In this document: positions 4,945 through 22,819 of the stretch, one piece after another
How the letters are laid out: every line of letters begins with the position of its first letter
Position numbering within the stretch: position 1 is the stretch's first letter
NCBI GenBank assembly: GCA_030017475.1
Contig: JASEIO010000017.1
Span: forward strand, 1 to 25,303
Direction of reading: 5' to 3'
DNA: 25,303 nucleotides
Source of the DNA: a bacterium
GTDB lineage: Bacteria > UBA9089 > JASEIO01
The notes under the pieces: generated by a model
Seen by the model: the letters and a program-made list of their open reading frames with translations, nothing else
The model's database searches: none
Told to the model about the DNA's origin: nothing
Made by a program: the position numbers and the translations under genes

Positions 4945-5024
4945 ATTTGGAAGTTATAAATCCTTTTTCGTTAACAGGAATTACTTGCGGGAAGGATGAT
5001 TCCTTAATTTTATGACATTGTAGC

Positions 5025-7016
5025 TTATACCCTCCCTTGAATCAAGGAATCCACTACCGATGGATCAGCCAAGGTGCTTGTGTCGCCAAGGGCCTCGATC
5101 TCTCCTTCGGCTATCTTGCGTAGTATCCGGCGCATTATCTTGCCCGAACGGGTCTTAGGCAATGCCGGGACAAATTGTATCTTCTCTGGTGTGGCAATAG
5201 GGCTTATCTCCTTTCGAACATGGCCGATCAGGGTCTTTTTAAGGGTATCCGATGGCTCGTATCCCTCTTTTAAGATGACATAGCAGTAGATACCCTGTCC
5301 CTTGATCTCGTGAGGAAAACCAACTACGGCTGCCTCAGCCACAGATGGATGGGAAACCAGAGCGCTTTCTATCTCAGCAGTGGCAAACCTGTGAGCAGAG
5401 ACATTGATGACGTCATCGATTCGTCCCATCAACCAGTAGAATCCATCCTCATCTATCCGGCACCCGTCCCCAGTAAAGTATTTGCCAGGGAACATAGAGA
5501 AATAGAACTTTTTTATAGTCTCATTATTCTTCTCTCCATATACTCCACGAATCATGCCAGGCCAGGGCTTGGTGATAACCAACATGCCACCTTCGTTTAT
5601 ATCTGCCTTTGTGCCATCCTTCCTCAGGACCTCAGGGGCAACACCGAAGAATGGTTTTGAGGCTGAAGCCGGTTTTGTGGGAGTAGCTCCGGCAAGAGGG
5701 GTAATGAGGATTCCACCGGTCTCGGTCTGCCACCAGGTATCTACGATTGGACATTTCCCTTTGCCAATTACATTGTAATACCACATCCAGGCCTCTGGAT
5801 TGATGGGTTCACCAACTGTCCCCAACACTCGAAGGCTTGAGAGGTCATGTTTATTAGGCCATTCCTCCCCTAGCCTCATCAAGGCCCGAATGGCCGTTGG
5901 GGCAGTATAAAAGATGTTTACCTTGTAATCTGCAACTATCTTCCAGAACCTATCTGGCTCAGGGTACGTAGGGACGCCTTCAAACATAAGGGACGTTGCT
6001 CCATTTGATAATGGACCATACACAATATATGAATGTCCTGTTACCCAGCCGATATCTGCTGTACACCAGAAGATATCCTCATCCTTTACATCAAATATCC
6101 ACTTGAAGCTAAGATGTACATGAAGTAGATACCCTGCTGTGGTGTGAAGCACCCCCTTTGGCTTACCAGTTGAACCACTGGTATAAAGGATGTAAAGCGG
6201 ATCTTCGGCATCCATCTCTTCCGGTTCACACTTATCTGTAATATCCTCGGCCTCCATCTCTTCGTGCCACCAGAAATCCCGTCCCGGCTTCATATCCACA
6301 GGGCTGTTGCCCCGGTTATAGACGATGACCTTCTCTACCCCTCCGCAATCATGGAGCGCCTCATCCGTCTTGCTCTTTAGGTCAATCACCCGTCCCCCAT
6401 GAAAGCCAATATCTGAGGTGATGACCATCTTAGATTCACAGTCAAGTATCCTGCCTTTTAAGGCCTCGGCGCTAAAGGCTGAAAAGACAACCGAGTGTAT
6501 AGCCCCAATTCTTGCACAGGCAAGCATGGCAATGGATAACTCAGGGATCATAGGTAAAAAGATAGTCACCACATCCCCTTTCTTTACTCCATGCTTCTTT
6601 AAAACATTGGCAAACTTGCAGACCTCAGTGTGTAACTGCTGATAGGTAATGGTACGCCTTTCCTCTTCTTTCTCGCCCTGCCAGATAAAGGCGGCCTTAT
6701 TTCTTCTTGGGGAATTAAGGTGCCTGTCCAGGCAGTTATAAGAGACATTGAGCCTTGCGCCCTGGAAGAATTTGAGATACGGCCCTTCAACCTCTCCAAT
6801 ATTTGAGAAGTCATATTCCAGGACACTGTCCCACTTCTTGAACCAGTCGATATTCTCTTCGGCCATTCTTCCCCAGAAACCCTCCGGGTCTTCTATTGAC
6901 TCCTTGTAAAGCCGTTCATACTCCTCCATGCTTTTGATGTAAGCCTTCTCGCTCAACTCTTTAGGAGGATAAAATATCCTTTCTTCCTTCATCATAGATT
7001 CCATTTCCTTTTGCAT
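5025..7016 (-). CDS. acsA: Acetyl-CoA synthetase (AMP-forming), copy 2
   Basis: A second full-length Acs (663 residues). It has [10 protein letters not shown] (279-288), WWQTET with the acetate-pocket Trp (428-433), the hinge GRIDD (531-535) and KTRSGK with catalytic Lys626. The C-terminal ending [12 protein letters not shown] is typical of bacterial Acs. The start is well supported by AGAGGTG four bases ahead of the ATG. In the A8 region the usual SGHRxGTAE reads SAHRFATAE (540-548), with both glycines replaced by alanine. Sample counts give about 50% GC here against about 43% in copy 1, so the two have different histories and are not a recent duplication. Repeat 2 covers its presumed promoter, shared with the glutamate dehydrogenase gene. 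Confidence 0.95.
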
Positions 7017-7209: not shown

Positions 7210-10155
7210 TTACTCCACCTGTCTACTTCCTCTAACCGGGTCCTTTACCAGCCTTATCTCATTTTCAACTGAAGAGGCAAAGGTTCCATCATGGCTGATT
7301 ACAAATAGTTGGTCAAAGCCATATTCATTGCGTACATTGTGTATGGCCTGGCCCAATCGGTCACATCTAACATCATCAAGGTTAGTAGTAGGCTCGTCAA
7401 AGATGCAGAAAGATATCTTTGTAAAATCCTTTACCATGGCCAATTGGATCGAAAGGGCAGCGGACATCTGCTCTCCACCAGATAACTGACGAAAGGTCCT
7501 AACCCCAGCCTTGGTCTTTACCTTTACCTCATAACCTTCAGCCCACTCAAGTTGAGATGGTTCTCGGGACATCCAATTGTAAATCTCATTGGCCCTTATA
7601 GAGATATTCTCTAAGAGCCTTTTGGATATAAATGGAGCAACTTGCCGAAGCACAGTCCAGATCTCTGACGTAACCTCTTTAGTAAACTCAAACCTCTCTT
7701 TCTCTCTCTCGAGGGACTTTTTCTTTTCCTTCCTCTCCTTTATCCCCTGGACCACGTTGCGGAGTTTATCTATCTCCTCTTTCGACCTTTTTACACCTTC
7801 TGTAACCTGGCCTATCTCCTTTTCCTTTTCCCTGATATCCTGTTCCAGTTCTTTATACCTTTCCGAATCGTATTCTACCTCTAACCTCTCTACCTCCTGT
7901 TTAAGCTTCAGGAAGACCTTTTTCTTCTCAGAAAGGCAAGATATAGTCTCTGAAAGTTTTTTTTGATATTCTCGTAAGTTCTTCCCTTCTTTCTCGTTAG
8001 ATATGTATAATCTATACGCCTCTTGACTGTCCTGCCTTTTCTTATTACACTTATCAATCTCCTCCGAAAGACCTTTATACGCCTTCAATTGCTCTACCAG
8101 AATCTTCTGTCTCTCTCGATTCTCTTTTAGGTCAGTCTTAAGCCCTTCGATCTGTTTCTTGAGTTCAATCGCTTGCTCCTTTTCCTTCTCAAGTTCTTTC
8201 AATTCCCTATTTAGGTTCTTCCTTCTCTCTTCAAATGCCTTTCTTTTTCCCGTAATCTGGCCTTCTTTTTCTACGGTTTTTAGCAGGGCCTGATCAACCA
8301 ACCTCCGATATTCTGTTATCTTGCATTTGGCATCTTCCTTGAAGGCAGATAATTCATCCTTTAGCTCCTCAAGTTTAGTCAAATTCTTAAATACAGGCTT
8401 ATCTCTCAGGAATCTTTCTCTCAAGAAATGGATAGAGAGTTCGTCTATTCCTTTTATCAAGGAAGGGTAGTCTATCTCCTGAACAGTGGTTAGGCAAGTC
8501 TTGAATCTTTCCTCTATCTCTTTTTTAAGAGACTCTACCATTGTCTTTCTCTTATCGTATTCAGTCAAAACCTCTTTGGCACGTTTTGTCTCTTTATATT
8601 TAGCCTCTGCCTTTTTGAATGATTCTTCATATCCTTGTAACTCCACACACCTTCTCTCAATCTCTTTATTGAAGACTTCAGGGTCTATTCGCTCGCATCT
8701 TTCTTTAAGAATGGGACAAAGTCCTCCCTTAGCCCTCTTTTTTTCTTCCCTTTTGGCTTTAATCTGTGTCTTTAAGATGGTGATTTTCTCCTGGAGTGCA
8801 GTCTTCTCTCCCTCAATGGAAATAAGCCTCGAAGCCTCTTGTAGATATCTCTCTTCATCTACTATGGAATTCAATATCTCTTTTATATCACGCTCCTTTT
8901 TCTCCATATCCAAAATAGATGCCTCAAGATTGGATTCTACGTTCTTTAGATGCTCAATCTGGAGTTCCATTCCCCTGACCTTCTTTTCTAATTCCTTAAT
9001 AGCTAAAGACGTATCTTTTGCATCCCTCTCTTCCTGCTTGATTAAAGAATCCTCTTTATCTAACACGCGAGATTCTTCTTGTAAAAATTCCTGCATCTCT
9101 TTCATCTTGGTCTCTTTCTCCATTAGATTACCTAAGTTTGCCTTGATGATACTTGAAAGTCTCTCTTCCTGTCTTCCCAAATTCGTTCTTTCATGCTCAA
9201 GCCTTTCCTTCCTTTTCCTATCCTTTTCAAGTTTTTTTAGCAGCGATTCACTCTCTTTAAAGGTATTGTATCCCTCCAGGTTATCATCAAGGATCTTTTT
9301 AGCCACTAAGGCCCTTTTTAATTGCCCTTCTTCATTCTCCTTCCTCTCTTCCAGACCTTTAATCTCGGCTTCTATAATACCTTTATCCTTCTTCCCTTTT
9401 TCGTAATCTGTACGTATTCTATCCAAATTAGACCTTTCTTCTATTAATGTAGAAAGGGTATCCTTCAAATCCCGAAGCCTCTTTTCTTCTTTCTTGATAG
9501 CCCTTTCCTTCTTTTTCAGTTGATCTTGATCATCCTTGTGGTCCTTTAAATAGGCATCAATCTCCGAGATGAGATTAGAAAGTTCATGGATTCGGTCTGG
9601 AATGAGTTGGTTTTTTATAGGTGAAAGGTAATCAGAGGATTGTTTGTAAACCTCTACATTTATTATTGGGTCGAAATGGTTGGACTTTTCCCGACCTGGT
9701 CGTAGCTTGAACCATGTAGTAAACTCTCCCTGACTGACACCAAGGATATTACTAAAGATATCTGGAAGATACCTTCTGTGTTCAATCGAGAATGCCTTAG
9801 CCAGCCATTCTGTTACGGACTCATCCCCCACAGCTATATCAAGTCCATCTTCCTCATCGTAAACTACCCATGAAGGATTATTTCCAATCCTACGTTCAAT
9901 CCTATAGACACGTTCATCTTCTAATTCTATCCAAACCTTAATCACACCAAATCCTTTTCCATGTCTGACTATCGATTTTAATTCAAGGGGATAAGGGTTA
10001 TGGTTGAAAAGTGAAAGTCCAATACTCTCCACAATGGTACTTTTCCCTGAACCATTACGACCAGAGATGAAATTTACCCCTTTCTGAAATTCGATACCAG
10101 GCGAGCCTTTGTGGAATGACTTGATGTCATGGAGCATAATCTTAAGAATCTGCAT
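7210..10155 (-). CDS. sbcC: SbcC/Rad50-type ATPase of the SbcCD DNA-repair nuclease
   Basis: ATPase subunit that, with SbcD, binds and trims DNA ends and hairpins. The 981 residues show an N-terminal ATPase lobe with Walker [10 protein letters not shown] (32-40), long charged coiled-coil arms at about 190-475 and 490-820, and a C-terminal lobe. That lobe has signature LSGGEQ (891-896), Walker B FCIFDEP (916-922) and switch His955. At the apex, where Rad50 and SbcC carry a CxxC zinc hook, this protein has CPILKERC (480-487), a wider Cys spacing. The ATG has AGGAAGG four bases upstream and overlaps the end of the glutamate dehydrogenase gene by 14 bp, which implies co-translation. Its partner sbcD is the first gene of the same run. 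Confidence 0.9.
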
Positions 10156-11413
10156 AAAGCCTTCCTCTCACCCAACCACGAAGTACCATTGCCTCAACCA
10201 CACGTCTAACAGCAGTCACATAGGCAGCTTGTCGCATGTTTATGTTGTACTTCTTTGAAGTATTTAGTACTGAGTGATAAGCAAATGTCATTTTCTTATC
10301 TAAACGCTCATGAACCTCTTTTTCATCCCAATAGTACATATAGAAGTTCTGCACCATCTCAAAATATGAAACTGTCACTCCGCCAGCGTTGCATAAGAAA
10401 TCAGGTATCACATGGACACCGTTTTTATACAGAATATCATCTGCCTCTGGTGTAGTTGGGCCGTTAGACAATTCAGCGAGAATCTTAGCCTTAATGTTCG
10501 GAGCATTATTTTTGGTAATAACATTTTCCAAAGCCGCAGGGATAAGTATATCCACCTCAAGTTCCAAGAGTTCTTCATTGGAGATAGATTTAGTATTTGG
10601 AAAATTGATTACCGAGGTGGTGTTAGCCTTATGTTCACGTACTGCCTCTGGAACAAGACCTTCCTTGCTAAATATACCCCCTTTGCTATCACTAACAGCC
10701 ACTACTTTACAGCCGAGAAGAGATTTAGTAAGATATGCTGCATAATATCCAGCATTCCCATAGCCCTGCACGGCAACAGTTGCTTTTTTTACGTCTATAC
10801 CACATTCTTTGGCAGCCTCACGAATGGTATATACCCCTCCCCGAGCTGTTGCGTCACCACGTCCAGCAGAACCACCAACGCTAAGCGGCTTACCAGTAAT
10901 AACACCAAACTGATTCTTCCCAGCAATCTTTGAGTACTCGTCCATCATCCAAGCCATTATTTGAGGGTTTGTGTAGACATCAGGTGCTGGAATATCTTTG
11001 TCTTGCCCAATGAACTGATATATTGCCTGTATATAGGCACGACTCAATCGCTCCAACTCACTCTGAGACATCTCCTTAGGATTGCAAATAACCCCGCCTT
11101 TTGCTCCTCCAAGGGGTAGATCAAGAAGGGCACACTTCCATGTCATCCAAGCTGCAAGTGCCCGTACAGTATCAATTGTTTCATCAGGATGAAATCGAAT
11201 TCCTCCCTTTGTTGGACCTTTCACATCATTGTATTGAACCCTGAATCCTTGAAACACTTTGATAGAGCCATCATCCATACGGACCGGCAACGATACGTGA
11301 AGTTCCCTCGCTGGAACTCGAAGGATTGCGTGTACATCAGGATCTAACTTTAGAATCCTTGCACACTCATCCAACTGCCTTTGTGTAACCTCAAATGGGT
11401 TAAGTTTTTCCAT
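10142..11413 (-). CDS. gdhA: Glutamate dehydrogenase (hexameric, Glu/Leu/Phe/Val family)
   Basis: Interconverts glutamate and 2-oxoglutarate plus ammonia using NAD(P). It has 423 residues from the chosen start, a normal hexameric length. Visible are the substrate region [10 protein letters not shown] (66-75, Lys69), catalytic Lys105 in PLGGAKGG, catalytic Asp145 in PAPDVYT, and the nucleotide-binding VQGYGNAG further on. An ATG fifteen bases upstream (11428) also opens the frame, but its first bases are part of GGAGGTG, which is correctly spaced for the ATG at 11413; I therefore choose 11413. The cofactor preference cannot be read reliably. The gene is placed between sbcD and sbcC, and repeat 2 covers its presumed promoter. 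This suggests transcription both from its own promoter and by readthrough from sbcD. Confidence 0.93.
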
Positions 11414-11458
11414 TTCTTTCACCTCCATTTCTGATTTTTACATATATCCTTCTTCTTC

Positions 11459-11516
11459 ATATATTTATTGGCTATTTCTTTCAAAAACATGAGCGCTTTT
11501 GGTTAATAACTGCTAT
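11459..11516 (-). repeat. Dispersed intergenic repeat 2, copy upstream of glutamate dehydrogenase
   Basis: Partner of 7120-7179. It begins at the sbcD stop codon and runs to about 45 bp before the glutamate dehydrogenase start. On the minus strand it contains CAAAAGCGCTCATGTTTTTG, an imperfect palindrome-like centre, directly followed by the -35-like TTGAAA. The short leaders behind both copies also look alike (an AT-rich run, then GAGGTGAAA). That suggests a duplicated control region, or one held similar by selection. Confidence 0.85.
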
Positions 11517-12772
11517 GGCACAAAAGAATGGATCACATCTAAGATAGTTTCATTATCCTCTTTTGCTAAAGCCATCTTCTTCACCCGCAGTACTATCTCT
11601 GTTATCTGTTCTTCAAAACCAGGAAACTTACCCCTTTCTTGAATAATCCTCTTTATCTCCTCTTTTTCGATCTGCTCCCTGGATATGGAGCCTTTATCTC
11701 TTGATGAAGAGACACCAGGCAAGGATTCATTTAACTTGTTAACTACATTCACCATAATAGGCGAAAACCTTTTGTATAATATATCCTTTATCTCTTCTAT
11801 CTCAATCACAAACGGTGAGAATTGTACATAGCCTATCAAGGTCAATTGGATTATAGAGGATTTGCCTATTTCCCAACTTTCTATCTCGTTTAAGATATAT
11901 TCTGTTGCCTGTTTCGGGGCGTTAAAATTTGGAAGAAGGATAGTCTTTAGATGAGTCTCCCTTCTTTTACTCTGATAGAAGTGAGGTTCGATCCTACCAG
12001 TAATTGGATCTATCACCACATGAAAGAACCCCTTTTCTTTATACCCAGCCTCCTCTATCCTCCAATTCTCAAGAGAACCAGGGTTGAATATCCAATTTTC
12101 CAACACATACCTTTGGTGGATATGACCAAGAGCCATGTAATCTATAACATCCTTAACAACCTCTATCTCCTCTTTGGTAGCACCACCAAACTCAGGTAGG
12201 ACTCCAGTGAGTCCTGAGTGAAGGATAAATATGTTGAACCGATCCTTCTCAATATATGGCTTAATGAGCTCTAATCTTCTACCTGTTGTTGCACCAAGGT
12301 ATCCAGCACCATATATCCTGATCCCATTTATATCTACATAGGCACCTATAGAATCCACATCATCCCAGGGTTTAAGGATAGGTATCTGACCATTGAACCT
12401 AATCTTAAGAAGCTTCAGATACTGTTTGGTGGAAAGATAAGAAAGCCACGATTCTCTTTCGATGTAGGATGGAGAATTATCATGGTTTCCTTCGATGGCT
12501 ATGACCGGTATCCCGTGCCTTTTTAGAATCCCCAGTCCCTCCTCAGCATCGCTTAGGTGGAGAGGTGTGATACGAGATTTGTTGAAAAGGTCTCCTGCTA
12601 TTAGAAAGAAATCGACCTTTTGTTGGATGGCAAACTCTACCACATGATTAAATGAATCCGTAAAATCACGTTCAGTAACTCCTTCCCCGAATCGGTCAGT
12701 GCCGATATGGATATCAGCACAATGTACAAAATGGACCTTCGAGCATCTACACCTATCAATCTTTTTGTCCAT
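11513..12772 (-). CDS. sbcD: SbcD/Mre11-type DNA-repair exonuclease
   Basis: Manganese-dependent nuclease subunit that works with SbcC. It has 419 residues from the chosen start. The phosphoesterase motifs are present: CADIHIG (18-24, Asp20 and His22), GDLF (60-63), GNHD (95-98), then LHSG and ALGHIH with FNPGS behind it. The frame is open back to a TTG at 12826. I choose the ATG at 12772 because a near-consensus promoter overlaps the upstream part and the phosphoesterase domain begins a few residues later. The predicted transcript start is then only a few bases before the ATG, and no ribosome site is visible, so the mRNA may be leaderless. It heads the sbcD-gdhA-sbcC run. Confidence 0.9.
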   Translation of the reverse strand: MDKKIDRCRCSKVHFVHCADIHIGTDRFGEGVTERDFTDSFNHVVEFAIQQKVDFFLIAGDLFNKSRITPLHLSDAEEGLGILKRHGIPVIAIEGNHDNSPSYIERESWLSYLSTKQYLKLLKIRFNGQIPILKPWDDVDSIGAYVDINGIRIYGAGYLGATTGRRLELIKPYIEKDRFNIFILHSGLTGVLPEFGGATKEEIEVVKDVIDYMALGHIHQRYVLENWIFNPGSLENWRIEEAGYKEKGFFHVVIDPITGRIEPHFYQSKRRETHLKTILLPNFNAPKQATEYILNEIESWEIGKSSIIQLTLIGYVQFSPFVIEIEEIKDILYKRFSPIMVNVVNKLNESLPGVSSSRDKGSISREQIEKEEIKRIIQERGKFPGFEEQITEIVLRVKKMALAKEDNETILDVIHSFVP

Positions 12773-12781
12773 ACTTGATGA

Positions 12782-12810
12782 ATTATAACTGAGATCTGTA
12801 AGGATTGCAA
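12782..12810 (-). promoter_or_regulatory. Promoter of sbcD
   Basis: On the minus strand TTGCAA (12810-12805), a 17-base spacer and a perfect TATAAT (12787-12782). The -10 ends nine bases before the ATG at 12772, which predicts a transcript with a leader of about three bases. Confidence 0.7.
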
Positions 12811-12826
12811 GAAAAATTACTTGCAA
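12805..12826. promoter_or_regulatory. Operator-like palindrome over the sbcD -35
   Basis: TTGCAAG (12805-12811), an eight-base AT spacer and CTTGCAA (12820-12826) form a perfect 7-8-7 inverted repeat. One arm coincides with the -35 of sbcD. A repressor dimer bound here would block sbcD and could also affect the divergent por operon. The binding protein is unknown. Confidence 0.45.
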
Positions 12827-17511: not shown

Positions 17512-17540
17512 TTGTAATCTTTTGCATTTCTAGGTATAAT
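17512..17540 (+). promoter_or_regulatory. Promoter of the SprA-like gene
   Basis: TTGTAA (17512-17517), a 17-base spacer and TATAAT (17535-17540) predict a start near 17547. The leader of about 29 nt contains TTGAGGAT before the ATG. The large gene therefore has its own promoter and need not depend on the por operon. Confidence 0.7.
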
Positions 17541-17575
17541 ATAAAAGTAAGGCTGAAATATCTTGAGGATAGATT

Positions 17576-20500
17576 ATGAGGGAAAATGTCATCTATAAAA
17601 AGAGGAGTACTTTCCTCAAGTTTTCTTTAATTATCTTATTGTGTTTATTTATACCTTCAATTTTGTCATCTTCTGAAATAAAACTACCTGAAAGATATGA
17701 AAAAGAGGTTTTGCATCTGATCCCTGATATAGAAAAGAAGGTCTCCTTTTCTTTCCAAGAGGAAGCCTTTCCAAAGAAAGAAACTCTGCTTCCCATAGAA
17801 GTTGAAGAAGTAGATCTAACGAAGAGGGAGAAAAAAGAGGTAATTTCAGAGATAGATCCAATTGAAGTAGAAGAAGGAGAAATTGTGGAAACAAAAGAGG
17901 ATGAGGTTCCGGTGGGATATGAAATTGTATCTCTTCAATTGAAGAAACCACAATATAATGAGGATACGTGGCAAAAGATAAGGTATAAAAAAGAAGGGGG
18001 GGCGCAGGCAATTGATCTTTCTCCAGGAAAACTTTTGGATTTTGAACTTCCATTATATACCCATTTAAATATTCAAGGAAGAAAGATGGTTGATATAAGA
18101 TTTGGTGGCTCCCATTATATCAACCCCAAAGATGATAAAGATCCACCAAGTGATTTAGCCAAGGGTCCGAAGATTAACCAGGAGTTGCAAGTAAGACTAA
18201 ATGGAAGGGTTAGAGAAAAGATCCATGTTAATATTGATCATGATAGTACAAAAGAGATAGAATCAGAAAGAAATGAAATCTCTGTACTTTACAAGGGTGA
18301 AGAAAAGGAGATAGTCAAAGAGATTGCCTTTGGTGATCTAAATCTATCCTTACCAAATACAGAATATGTTTCATATTCAAAAAGTCTTTTTGGGGTAAAG
18401 GGGTCCGCAGAATTGGGAAGGTTCAAGGTAATGGGCATTGGATCAACGATTAAAGGAATTCCAAAAAAGAAGACATTCAAAGGGAAAAAAGTGCAGCAAG
18501 CACCTGTTGATATTAATGATACAAATTTTATAGATAGAAAGTACTACCAGGTTTTGCAAAAGAATGATGATATAAGTAAATATCTTCCAATTGTTTATGG
18601 TTCAGAAAAGGTCTATATTGATGACCGGGATGGAACCAACAATCAAACCTCTGAATCCATTGTGGCATGGAGTTATGATCATTGGACTGATAAGAAGGAG
18701 GACGAATCTTATAATAAGGAGAAGATGAATCTGTTTGACCTGCAGTATTCAGGGGTAGACTATATCATTAATTATCAAACCGGCATTATTATCTTTAAAA
18801 AAGCCATCCCAGAGAATTGGATTATCATAATAGCCTTTAAATATAAAGGAGGGTCATATGGATATACTGGAGAGAATTTGGATAAGGATAACTTTTTAAT
18901 TATAAAGCATGATAAGTCAATTTGTGGTGAGGATAGATATAAAAGGTTATATAGTTTTTATGAACTTAAAAATTATTATACCTTGGGAAATGTAGATATT
19001 GATATTAAAGACAAGGACTTTGTTTTGGAGATACGGGATAAAAATAATAGATGTTATTATGATAGAAACCAAAATGGTGAAAGGGATAAAGGGGAATACA
19101 CATATTTACAGATCTTTGGTTTAGATAAAGATGGAAATGATAAGATCGACTATGAATATATAAATACGGACTGGGGCATCTTAAATTTTCCTGACCCAAC
19201 ACCTTTCGAATTGATAAGAGATGGTAAAAGGGATAAAAACCCTGTCTTGGCTAAATTTAGTGATTCGGAATTGGAAGAGATTTCTAATCTAAGGTTATAT
19301 GATGTCTCATATAAGGAGAATAAATATAGCATACATCTGGAATACAAAACAGAGGTAAAGGAATATACCATCGGTGAACAGATAGCTGAAAAGGGGGTAA
19401 AGGTCTATATTAATGGAGAAAAGGTTTCCGAAGATAAATATACAGTCTTTCATGAAATTGGAAAGATAACCTTTTCCGAAGATGTGAGAATCGATGAGGA
19501 TTCAGAGATAGAGGTCTATTATGAATCTTTACCGTGGATAGGTGGAAAAGAGAAGACCATGTACGGAGGAAGAATTGAATTCGCCCCAAGCAAAAATCTA
19601 TCAATTGGTTCTACCTATATCTATGAAGGTTTGCCTAAAGCACGTGAAGTGCCTCAAGTAGACTCCACCTCAGAAGATTTAAAATTACTGGATGTTAATG
19701 CACGCCTTGAGGTAACCCCTTATATTGAAGGCCTGTTTAAACGAGATATCCCTATAGATCTCAGTGTATCAGGGGAGATAGCTCAATCTTATCATAATCC
19801 AAACACATTCGATAAGGCATTGATTGACTCCATGGATGGGATAGAGGATGTAAGGAGTGTGACATTGGATAAGAAGGACTGGTATATAGCCTCTAATCCA
19901 GGACCGGAAGCCCCTGAAGATAAAAGAGGAAAATTTTATCTAAAAAATGAGGATATAAAAGAGAAGGACATCAATCCAAATTCAATCTCTACGGGAAAAA
20001 GGAATGTCTTGGTTTTGGAATACGATAAGGATTGGATAGCCATTTGTACCTTAATATCAAAAAGGGGGGAAGATTATTCTAAACATAAATTTTTGCAGGT
20101 TTGGGTTTATGGAGAGGAGGATAATCCTACATTATGGATTGATTTGGGTAAGATTTCAGAGGATGTAGACATGGATGGAGCGATGGATACAGAGGATAAA
20201 AATGGAGACGGACTATTAAATAAAGGGGAAGATATAGGATGGCATTTTGAAGGTAAATCGGATTTTCAAGATCAAACAGGTAAGGATAATAACAGGTTAG
20301 ATACAGAGGATTTAGATGGGGATGGGATACTTGATGAGACCGTAGAAAAACCAGTTGGTAGGTATAGGATTCTTGTTCAAAAAGGATGGCATAAATATTT
20401 TCTAAGACTTAAAGAGGACAATGAAGGAGGTAAGGGTGGGGAAGATTGGAAGTATGTGAAACACGTAAGATTGTGGCTGCAGAGTAAAGGTAAAGGAATG

Positions 20501-22819
20501 ATAAAGATTTCAGAAATTATGATTATTGGCAACAAGTGGGAAGAGGAGAATATAATCATAAGTGCTGTAGATAATGAAGATGAGGAATATAAGGATAAGC
20601 ACCTATTGGATAACACAGATTATAAGGAATTATATAAATCAGAGGAGAAAAAGAAGGAAGGGGCATTAAAATTGGAATATGATTTAAGAGAAGGGGAAGA
20701 GGGTTATGCCTTAAAAAGGTTTACTAAGGCGCAGGATTATTCAAAATATGATTCCCTAAAATCTTGGATATATGGTGATGGAAAGGGAGAGACATTCTTC
20801 TTTATGTTTGGGGCAGATGCCAATAATTACATTAGATATAACATCCCTATTGATTTTACTGGATGGAAGTTAATCACAATTTCGCTCAAAAAGGTAAGGG
20901 ATATAATGACAAAAATGCTTGATGAGAAATCTAATAAAGGATATAAGGAGGGGAATTATGAACTTAAAGGGAGTCCTTCCTTATCCAATATTAGAGAGAT
21001 CCGTCTCGGAGTGATTGGAGAAGGAAGTGGAGAGATTTTGGTTAACGAGATCCATTTAGCCAATATATCAAAAGTCGTTACAAAACCCGCAGAGGCAAAA
21101 AGATTGGATGTCTCACTTAAATCGAAATGGCTAAATGTCTATGGAGGCTATAAAGAGATGGACGGCAATTTCCGCTCAATTGGTAGAACCCCTTCATTAA
21201 AGCAGGAGCTTTCTAAGAGATTAAAAGGTGAATTAAATCTGATAAGATTCCTTCCTTTATCATACTCTATAGAAAGAAATGAGTCATATGCTCCGCCCGA
21301 TATAGCAAAGGATGTATTACGAGCTGATCTATGGGTAAGGGATGAGGAAAGGGAGGAATGGACCGCGAGGTTTAATATGAAAGGCTTACCTAAACTAACT
21401 GGAACCTACGAAAAGAGGTTAGTGAAGAAGAAACCCAATAAAATGTATAAGGGATATAGAGAGATAGAGGATGAGAATAATACCTCTTCGATAGCCACTT
21501 ATAATTATAATTTCCCAAAAAGAGTCCTTTGGATTATCCCAACAGGCTACAGACTTTCTCTAAATACAAATTATGGATATAAATATAAAGAAAGGATTAC
21601 CCGGAATCTGGAAGAGGATAAAGAAGAAAAGGTAGATGAAAGGATTCAATCAGCTGGATTAGGATTTGATTTCTCACCTATAAAGGTTCTTACCTTTTCA
21701 CCAACACTTGCGGCAAATCAAAAAGAGGAGAAGAAAAAAGGATGTAGTTTCTCTCTTAAGACAAGGGAGATTGATTTAGGTTCTAAGATAGAACTTACGG
21801 AGGTTATAGGGATAAAACCAAGATTTGACTTTAAGGGCAAATACAATGAAACCTTTAAAGAAAAGGCTGAGCATGAGGCAAGGGATGCAAGAACAGGGGT
21901 AAATCTTACCTTAAATGTTAAGATTAGACCTGAAAAGTGGTGGCGCTTACTTAGATTTGTAGAATTAACCCCTGAATATAGAATTGATTTGACCGCCAAT
22001 TATTACGATTTAGAAGGCTCGGATCACCTTGATACATTAAAGGCTGTGGAGAAAATATATCGCGATTTTTATTCAGATCAAATTAGTTTTGAAGACAAGC
22101 CAATAGATATAAACACAGGACTTTTTACCCTTAGAAGGCAGGCTACTACTGAAAGAACAAGGTCATTAAATACAAGATGGTTCGTTTGGCGCCCCTTACA
22201 AACAACCATAGATTATAAAATGAGTAAAGAGAAGAGGCAAACAGAGGGCTCAATAACTTACCGAAATTCCACTGATTATGATTCCTCTTTCCGCCTTTCT
22301 CTTTTTGAAAGAGATGTATCTTCCTATTTGCTATTGAAATATAGGTGGTCAGGAATTGAACAACCCGCTTTAATTACAATCACCCAGAGCCCCGGAATTG
22401 TCTTACAAATAAAATGGTCAGAGATATTCAGAACAAAATTTGAAACAAGATACACCCATAAAAAGGAGGAGATGAAAGGGGTTAATATCGATGAAACACT
22501 CGCCCCAAGTATAAACCTCCATTATACCCTCAAAAAACCAGGGGCTATTAAGATCCCTTTTACAAAAAGACAGATTTCCTTGAGGAATAAAGTAGAAATG
22601 GATTTTGATATAGAGTCTATCTTCAATAGAAGGAGAGAGCTGCGGGTTCCCAAAAAGGATACAGATAAATATAGCTTAGGATTACGCTTTGGCTACGATC
22701 TAAAAGAAGGTATTACTGGAACCTTAGGGGCAAAAACCAATTATCTTATCGATCATATAGAGGAAGGAAAAGATTATTGGGCATACGAAGGCTCTTTTAG
22801 GGTAGAGATAAGGTTCTAA
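17576..22819 (+). CDS. SprA-like giant outer-membrane protein (putative T9SS translocon homologue)
   Basis: A 1747-residue exported protein. Residues 1-33 form a Sec signal (KKR, then a hydrophobic run to about 31), and 35-115 a Glu/Lys-rich linker. From about 150 to 700 the sequence resembles the SprA family: NGRVREKIHVNIDHDS (209-224), then GDLNLSLPNTEYVSYSKSLF (253-272), GVKGSAELGRFKV, YGSEKVYIDDRDGTNN (341-356) and SGVDYIINYQTGIIIF. Asp-rich calcium-type loops occur at about 496-527 and 863-921. The region after 1180 alternates like beta-barrel strands and ends in FRVEIRF with a terminal Phe. Bacteroidota SprA is about 2300-2500 residues, so this form is shorter. No other T9SS gene is visible. 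The family link is from motif memory; secretion function is an inference. Confidence 0.75.
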   Translation: MRENVIYKKRSTFLKFSLIILLCLFIPSILSSSEIKLPERYEKEVLHLIPDIEKKVSFSFQEEAFPKKETLLPIEVEEVDLTKREKKEVISEIDPIEVEEGEIVETKEDEVPVGYEIVSLQLKKPQYNEDTWQKIRYKKEGGAQAIDLSPGKLLDFELPLYTHLNIQGRKMVDIRFGGSHYINPKDDKDPPSDLAKGPKINQELQVRLNGRVREKIHVNIDHDSTKEIESERNEISVLYKGEEKEIVKEIAFGDLNLSLPNTEYVSYSKSLFGVKGSAELGRFKVMGIGSTIKGIPKKKTFKGKKVQQAPVDINDTNFIDRKYYQVLQKNDDISKYLPIVYGSEKVYIDDRDGTNNQTSESIVAWSYDHWTDKKEDESYNKEKMNLFDLQYSGVDYIINYQTGIIIFKKAIPENWIIIIAFKYKGGSYGYTGENLDKDNFLIIKHDKSICGEDRYKRLYSFYELKNYYTLGNVDIDIKDKDFVLEIRDKNNRCYYDRNQNGERDKGEYTYLQIFGLDKDGNDKIDYEYINTDWGILNFPDPTPFELIRDGKRDKNPVLAKFSDSELEEISNLRLYDVSYKENKYSIHLEYKTEVKEYTIGEQIAEKGVKVYINGEKVSEDKYTVFHEIGKITFSEDVRIDEDSEIEVYYESLPWIGGKEKTMYGGRIEFAPSKNLSIGSTYIYEGLPKAREVPQVDSTSEDLKLLDVNARLEVTPYIEGLFKRDIPIDLSVSGEIAQSYHNPNTFDKALIDSMDGIEDVRSVTLDKKDWYIASNPGPEAPEDKRGKFYLKNEDIKEKDINPNSISTGKRNVLVLEYDKDWIAICTLISKRGEDYSKHKFLQVWVYGEEDNPTLWIDLGKISEDVDMDGAMDTEDKNGDGLLNKGEDIGWHFEGKSDFQDQTGKDNNRLDTEDLDGDGILDETVEKPVGRYRILVQKGWHKYFLRLKEDNEGGKGGEDWKYVKHVRLWLQSKGKGMIKISEIMIIGNKWEEENIIISAVDNEDEEYKDKHLLDNTDYKELYKSEEKKKEGALKLEYDLREGEEGYALKRFTKAQDYSKYDSLKSWIYGDGKGETFFFMFGADANNYIRYNIPIDFTGWKLITISLKKVRDIMTKMLDEKSNKGYKEGNYELKGSPSLSNIREIRLGVIGEGSGEILVNEIHLANISKVVTKPAEAKRLDVSLKSKWLNVYGGYKEMDGNFRSIGRTPSLKQELSKRLKGELNLIRFLPLSYSIERNESYAPPDIAKDVLRADLWVRDEEREEWTARFNMKGLPKLTGTYEKRLVKKKPNKMYKGYREIEDENNTSSIATYNYNFPKRVLWIIPTGYRLSLNTNYGYKYKERITRNLEEDKEEKVDERIQSAGLGFDFSPIKVLTFSPTLAANQKEEKKKGCSFSLKTREIDLGSKIELTEVIGIKPRFDFKGKYNETFKEKAEHEARDARTGVNLTLNVKIRPEKWWRLLRFVELTPEYRIDLTANYYDLEGSDHLDTLKAVEKIYRDFYSDQISFEDKPIDINTGLFTLRRQATTERTRSLNTRWFVWRPLQTTIDYKMSKEKRQTEGSITYRNSTDYDSSFRLSLFERDVSSYLLLKYRWSGIEQPALITITQSPGIVLQIKWSEIFRTKFETRYTHKKEEMKGVNIDETLAPSINLHYTLKKPGAIKIPFTKRQISLRNKVEMDFDIESIFNRRRELRVPKKDTDKYSLGLRFGYDLKEGITGTLGAKTNYLIDHIEEGKDYWAYEGSFRVEIRF

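What the first reader, a model, noticed from the sequence alone, without database searches (positions are those of the whole stretch)
17576..22819. SprA-like giant exported protein without other T9SS genes nearby
The N-terminal half carries recognisable SprA/Sov-type segments, and the C-terminus looks like an outer-membrane barrel with a final Phe. The neighbours (Por, PurE, LarB, Acs) do not suggest Bacteroidota. At 1747 residues it is much shorter than gliding-motility SprA, so it may be a minimal translocon or a related channel with another job.
Basis: partly seen in the sequence, partly recalled or inferred. Interest (0 to 1): 0.75.

Follow-up and report, generated by a model that had tools for sequence, protein, structure and literature searches.

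The report
SprA-type secretion pore outside Bacteroidota
This gene encodes a complete outer-membrane protein-export pore of the type IX (SprA/Sov) kind in a candidate phylum outside the groups that reviews list; the same genome carries export-tagged cargo genes, each beside its own PorV-type carrier gene, but the known motor genes were not found.

Summary
The ORF at 17576-22819 (+, 1747 aa) is a real SprA/Sov-family translocon. TIGR04189 E = 6.6e-51 (172.8 bits, under the curated 200). A family profile finds SprA (6h3i) at 2.5e-70. Two overlapping AlphaFold fragments (pLDDT 83 and 86) both have SprA as top PDB match and align colinearly with SprA residues 121-2399, down to the last Phe. So it is short but not truncated.

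The host belongs to the candidate phylum of Ca. Desantisbacteria CG2_30_40_21 (NCBI Ca. Desantisiibacteriota); all 19 genomes held have a homologue. All 15 cargo genes lie directly beside a PorV-family gene on the same strand. GldM and GldN models find nothing in the phylum but ring strongly in two control genomes; GldL and PorU-type peptidase were not found in this genome.

Best reading: a SprA-PorV-CTD export system with dedicated carriers and without the recognisable Gld motor. Distribution and pairing are shown; secretion itself and its energy source are inferred.

The parts
17576..22819 (+). sprA/sov-like gene, 1747 aa outer-membrane translocon
17512..17540 (+). promoter-like site TTGTAA-17-TATAAT 35 bp before the start codon (number of such sites in the region is not above chance)
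17565..17568 (+). GAGG, possible ribosome-binding site
   Evidence: sequence read; inference
17576..17671 (+). signal-peptide-like N-terminus, residues about 1-32 (charged start, hydrophobic core)
   Evidence: sequence; no signal-peptide predictor was available
17672..18049 (+). charged, poorly conserved linker, residues about 33-158
   Evidence: alignment A2
18050..19798 (+). conserved N-terminal SprA segments, residues about 159-741
19799..21097 (+). jelly-roll (CBM11-like) region inside the SprA fold, residues about 742-1174; Pfam CBM_11 at residues 1018-1109; probably the counterpart of the SprA cap (inference)
21098..22816 (+). C-terminal barrel part, residues about 1175-1747, more than 20 long strands, terminal Phe at 22814-22816

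Best explanation
The gene encodes a full-length SprA/Sov-type outer-membrane translocon. Proposed working: cargo crosses the inner membrane by Sec; its C-terminal Ig-like signal (CTD) is bound inside the SprA pore by the loops of a PorV-family barrel docked at the pore's lateral opening; the PorV-cargo complex leaves sideways to the cell surface. In this genome each detected cargo gene lies next to a PorV-family gene, so each cargo probably has its own carrier, much as type B cargo pairs with PorP/SprF in Flavobacterium. No recognisable GldL/M/N motor and no PorU-type sortase were found, so cargo is probably left uncleaved or carrier-bound, and energy comes from an unidentified or strongly diverged module. 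Shown: homology, fold, presence of the three core parts in the genome, pairing, lack of GldM/GldN matches. Inferred: export itself, carrier specificity, lateral exit, energy source, fate of cargo.
For: SprA; present in 19 of 19 genomes of the phylum and grouping with them in the tree, so not a stray contig. Cargo: 15 proteins with TIGR04183 matches in this genome, tails shown. Carriers: 21 NF033709 matches; all 16 aligned members match PorV_fam and 15 match the PorV equivalog model; their profile finds PDB PorV at 5.6e-34, FadL only at 3e-5. Pairing: 15 of 15 cargo genes next to a PorV gene, same strand, -7 to 128 bp apart, 14 as cargo then PorV, 1 the other way. Missing parts: GldM none in the phylum, 3.4e-108 and 4.8e-118 in G080 and G221; GldN likewise; GldL none in G000; Peptidase_C25 none in G000. 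Mechanism of pore, PorV and CTD in Flavobacterium: PMC10994853.
Against: No experiment; the genomes are fragmented assemblies. TIGR04189 score is under the curated cut-off. PorV_fam is distantly related to FadL-like porins and the weakest members (C11, C75, C83, C18) are under its cut-off. CTD models overlap FlgD_ig, a general Ig-like fold; 2 of the 15 cargo hits are under the cut-off. In sister genomes pairing is partial: 2 of 29 top CTD loci have a PorV within 1.5 kb, 10 of 19 top PorV loci have a CTD neighbour. A diverged motor could escape the Gld models.
Confidence: 0.8

Rival explanations
1. A canonical T9SS with a strongly diverged GldL/M/N motor that the profile models miss, or that lies in the missing 1.5% of the genome.
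For: SprA itself scores under its curated cut-off, so other parts may have drifted further. GldL models gave only noise-level hits and had no positive control in that search.
Against: GldM and GldN are absent from all 19 genomes of the phylum, not just one, while both models ring at E 1e-30 or better in G080 and G221; SprA, PorV and CTD are all easily found in the same genomes.
Confidence: 0.3
2. A SprA-family channel that has lost protein export and does another job, such as lipid or polysaccharide passage; the CTD and PorV genes belong to a different pathway.
For: In 36 of 90 homologous loci, mostly Elusimicrobia, the LPS permease genes lptF/lptG lie beside sprA; no Gld motor found.
Against: In the window's own genome and its whole phylum SprA co-occurs with CTD cargo and PorV; the window gene has no lpt neighbour; PorV-CTD pairs also lie near sprA in several of the lpt-linked loci.
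Confidence: 0.08
3. Assembly or binning artefact: a Bacteroidota contig in the wrong bin.
For: Some MAG labels among the homologues are plainly wrong (Nitrospira, Marinifilum, Clostridia).
Against: Contamination 0.18%; all 19 genomes of the phylum have it; the sequence groups with two genomes of the same phylum in the tree; neighbours are housekeeping genes on the same contig.
Confidence: 0.01

Closest known systems
SprA of Flavobacterium johnsoniae (PDB 6h3i, 6h3j, 8gl6, 8gl8; PMC10994853)
   Same: Colinear over SprA residues 121-2399; top hit by sequence profile and by fold; PorV-family partners and CTD cargo in the genome
   Different: 1747 against 2403 aa, about 14-21% identity in structural alignment; no GldL/M/N found; no T9SS gene beside it
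Sov of Porphyromonas gingivalis with PorV and PorU (PMC10202324)
   Same: Same family (TIGR04189), type-A-like CTD cargo, PorV-type carrier
   Different: There PorV serves type A cargo and PorU cleaves the CTD; here many PorV-family genes, one beside each cargo gene, and no C25 peptidase found in this genome
Type B cargo with cognate PorP/SprF in F. johnsoniae (PMC12618676)
   Same: Cargo gene next to the gene of its own carrier
   Different: Here the carriers are PorV/PorQ family, not PorP/SprF, and the tails match the type A model TIGR04183 (several also match CHU_C weakly)
SprA homologues of Elusimicrobia and Aerophobetes found here
   Same: Short-form SprA of 1500-1850 aa, PorV-CTD pairs near some of them
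   Different: About 26-35% identity; often beside lptF/lptG, which the window gene is not
CTD-tagged proteins of Poribacteria (PMC3909097)
   Same: T9SS C-terminal tags outside Bacteroidota with no known structural genes reported at the time
   Different: There no pore was found; here a full SprA pore and PorV carriers are present

Membership tests
SprA/Sov translocon family | Sequence homology to SprA along the chain | tested here: met
   E 6.6e-51; profile against 6h3i E 2.5e-70
SprA/Sov, as NCBI equivalog TIGR04189 | Score over the curated naming cut-off (a naming threshold, not a biological feature) | tested here: not met
   172.8 against 200 bits
SprA/Sov translocon family | SprA fold over the full length, including the C-terminal barrel part | tested here: met
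   Fragments 150-1215 and 640-1747: SprA first in Foldseek; aligned to SprA 121-1565 and 745-2399, Z 16.5-18.9
SprA/Sov translocon family | Closed 36-strand barrel with lateral opening and cap | tested here: inconclusive
   Protein exceeds the 1200-residue limit, so only fragments were folded; strands are compatible but no closed barrel was modelled
SprA/Sov translocon family | PorV docking at the lateral opening and CTD binding in the pore | not testable with these tools
   No complex prediction available
Type IX secretion system | Cargo with T9SS CTD encoded in the genome | tested here: met
   13 matches at E <= 0.001 and 15 proteins at E <= 0.1, 13 of them over the cut-off
Type IX secretion system | PorV-type carrier | tested here: met
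   21 NF033709 matches; profile to PDB PorV 5.6e-34
Type IX secretion system, complete Bacteroidota type | GldM of the motor | tested here: not met
   None in 19 genomes, with working positive controls
Type IX secretion system, complete Bacteroidota type | GldL of the motor | tested here: inconclusive
   None in G000, noise-level hits elsewhere, no positive control in that search
Type IX secretion system, complete Bacteroidota type | GldN/PorN ring protein | tested here: not met
   None in 19 genomes, found in G080 and G221
Type IX secretion system, complete Bacteroidota type | PorU sortase (C25 peptidase) | tested here: not met
   None in G000; C25 peptidases in 9 of 19 genomes of the phylum
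Type IX secretion system, complete Bacteroidota type | GldK, SprE/PorW, SkpA, Plug, PorT, PorP/SprF | not tested

The most novel reading that the evidence does not exclude
A SprA-based export system that works without the GldL/M/N rotary motor and in which every cargo has its own dedicated PorV carrier; energy would come from another source, for example a TonB/Tol-type motor, cargo folding, or (most speculative) coupling to LptFG.
Probability: 0.5. Interest if true: 0.8.

Novelty: new variant of a known kind. Interest (0 to 1): 0.6.

Why it matters
Reviews place T9SS in Bacteroidota and related FCB phyla and say it is absent elsewhere (PMC11285876, PMC4793230). A full SprA with CTD cargo and PorV carriers throughout another candidate phylum, and SprA relatives in Elusimicrobia and Aerophobetes, would push the origin of the SprA-PorV-CTD core well before the rotary motor and gliding, or show wide transfer. 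It also offers an answer to the puzzle raised for Poribacteria in 2014, where CTD-tagged proteins were seen without a known export machine (PMC3909097): the sought machine may be a lone, diverged sprA rather than a gene cluster. One cargo, one PorV would be a natural test set for carrier specificity.

Tried and rejected
Pfam for SprA_N: no hit at E <= 0.1, so Pfam alone would have missed this. phmmer of the single protein against PDB: nothing; the alignment profile was needed. First genome-contig scan with the single protein found no relative. 16S rRNA search in the genome: none, so no 16S placement. Idea that pairing is universal in the phylum: rejected, sister genomes are mixed. Idea that sprA has a conserved accessory gene beside it in this phylum: none found. 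LptF/LptG as part of the system: seen in 36 of 90 loci but not at the window gene, so kept only as a side observation. Papers joining T9SS with Aerophobetes: none in the held library; with Elusimicrobia: three, and those opened (two of three) do not report a T9SS there. The papers held are open-access only, so earlier reports cannot be excluded. Tools annotating genomes (NCBI) already name single proteins of such MAGs as PorV family or T9SS CTD, from my own knowledge.

Full report
The observation. The ORF at 17576-22819 (+) is intact, 1747 aa, with an ATG start and a signal-peptide-like N-terminus. It matches the T9SS translocon model TIGR04189 at E 6.6e-51 in four stretches, 172.8 bits, under the curated cut-off of 200. 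Pfam reports only a CBM_11 stretch and no SprA_N. A profile from 20 homologues finds the solved SprA sequence (6h3i) at E 2.5e-70.

Fold. The protein exceeds the folding limit, so two overlapping fragments were predicted from alignments of 65-66 homologues: residues 150-1215 (mean pLDDT 83.4) and 640-1747 (86.1). In both, the four SprA entries head the Foldseek list by about 30 orders of magnitude or more. By VIA-align, residues 150-1215 align to SprA 121-1565 and residues 649-1747 to SprA 745-2399, Z 16.5-18.9. Global rmsd is large (8-18 A), as expected for cut barrel fragments with pTM 0.60; the claim rests on colinearity, Z above unrelated rows, and sequence profile together. A jelly-roll region (residues about 742-1174) resembles CBM11 and sits inside the SprA alignment. 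The protein is therefore a shortened but complete SprA, not a truncated one. Closed barrel and strand number were not modelled.

Host. The genome is 1.64 Mb, 98.5% complete, 0.18% contaminated. Genomes of the same phylum coincide with named records of Ca. Desantisbacteria CG2_30_40_21, UBA9089, UBA9088 and others (contig lengths and positions agree); NCBI places the first in Ca. Desantisiibacteriota; I recall GTDB's name as UBA9089 but did not check it. All 19 genomes of the phylum have a homologue, of about 1700-2500 aa where complete. In a quick tree the window protein groups with two members of the phylum. A scan of GTDB genomes returned 262 relatives, most of the 80 kept being Elusimicrobia and Aerophobetes. 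Record labels such as Nitrospira, Marinifilum or Clostridia on some of them look wrong given their place in the tree.

Partners. No T9SS gene lies in the window. In the genome at large TIGR04183 finds 15 CTD proteins at E <= 0.1 (13 over the cut-off). All other genomes of the phylum have 1-46 matches. PorV_fam NF033709 gives 21 matches in this genome and 4-35 in the sisters. Sixteen of these aligned all match PorV_fam, and 15 match the PorV equivalog model; their profile picks out PDB PorV at 5.6e-34 and FadL only at 3e-5.

Pairing. In this genome every one of the 15 CTD genes is immediately next to a PorV-family gene on the same strand with no gene between; distances run from a 7-base overlap to 128 bases; 14 are cargo then PorV, one is PorV then cargo. 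By my rough estimate (21 PorV among about 1600 genes) fewer than one such pair is expected by chance. Two further PorV genes (C11, C75) lie beside exported proteins with FlgD_ig-like tails. Cargo domains include an M23 peptidase, VWA, metallophosphoesterases, NHL and PD40 propellers and fn3 repeats. In sister genomes the picture is mixed: 2 of 29 top CTD loci have a PorV within 1.5 kb, and 10 of 19 top PorV loci have a CTD neighbour. So strict pairing is a property of this genome, not of the phylum.

What is missing. GldM is found in none of the 19 genomes but at 3.4e-108 and 4.8e-118 in two control genomes met in the same search; GldN gives the same pattern. GldL gave no match in this genome and noise elsewhere, without positive control. 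Peptidase_C25, the PorU fold, is absent here and present in 9 of 19. GldK, SprE/PorW, SkpA, Plug, PorT and PorP/SprF were not tested.

Mechanism. In Flavobacterium the CTD binds PorV loops inside the SprA pore and the pair leaves through the lateral opening, with energy from the proton-driven motor (PMC10994853). The three core parts are here, so the same path is the most likely one. One PorV beside each cargo suggests dedicated carriers, as shown for type B cargo with PorP/SprF (PMC12618676), but with PorV-family carriers and type-A-like tails. What replaces the motor is unknown.

Known or new. Reviews restrict T9SS to Bacteroidota or the FCB group and state absence elsewhere (PMC11285876, PMC11205867, PMC4793230). 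CTD tags without known machinery were noted in Poribacteria (PMC3909097). The protein is a member of the SprA family by homology and fold; the system as a whole is not a complete Bacteroidota-type T9SS, since GldM and GldN were tested and not found. I rate it a new variant of a known kind.

Noticed in passing
36 of 90 sprA loci, e.g. L127, L147, L152, L187; also G000 C16 (L266:8836-11031): LPS permease genes lptF/lptG lie beside sprA, mostly head to head, in Elusimicrobia and some others; in the window's genome an lptF/lptG pair lies upstream of a cargo-PorV pair.
   Followed up: partly
L048:3695-7132 (+), L049:3774-7232 (-): Short SprA paralogues of about 1150 aa in sister genomes, matching TIGR04189 at 5e-23 and 1.5e-16, beside the full-length gene elsewhere in the same genomes.
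   Followed up: partly
window 5001-7000: The second acetyl-CoA synthetase gene (5025-7016, -) stands out in G+C (0.46-0.49 against 0.34-0.43 around it), as if recently acquired.
   Followed up: no
window 7210-12826: Rad50-like and Mre11-like genes flank a glutamate dehydrogenase whose best NCBIfam model is the archaeal GdhA.
   Followed up: no
L123, L141, L129, L167: MAG records titled Nitrospira, Marinifilum and Clostridia carry SprA genes that group with Desantisbacteria, Aerophobetes or Elusimicrobia relatives; the labels are probably wrong.
   Followed up: partly
L127, L130, L131, L147, L152, L180, L187: PorV-family and CTD genes lie side by side near sprA in Elusimicrobia and Aerophobetes too.
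   Followed up: partly
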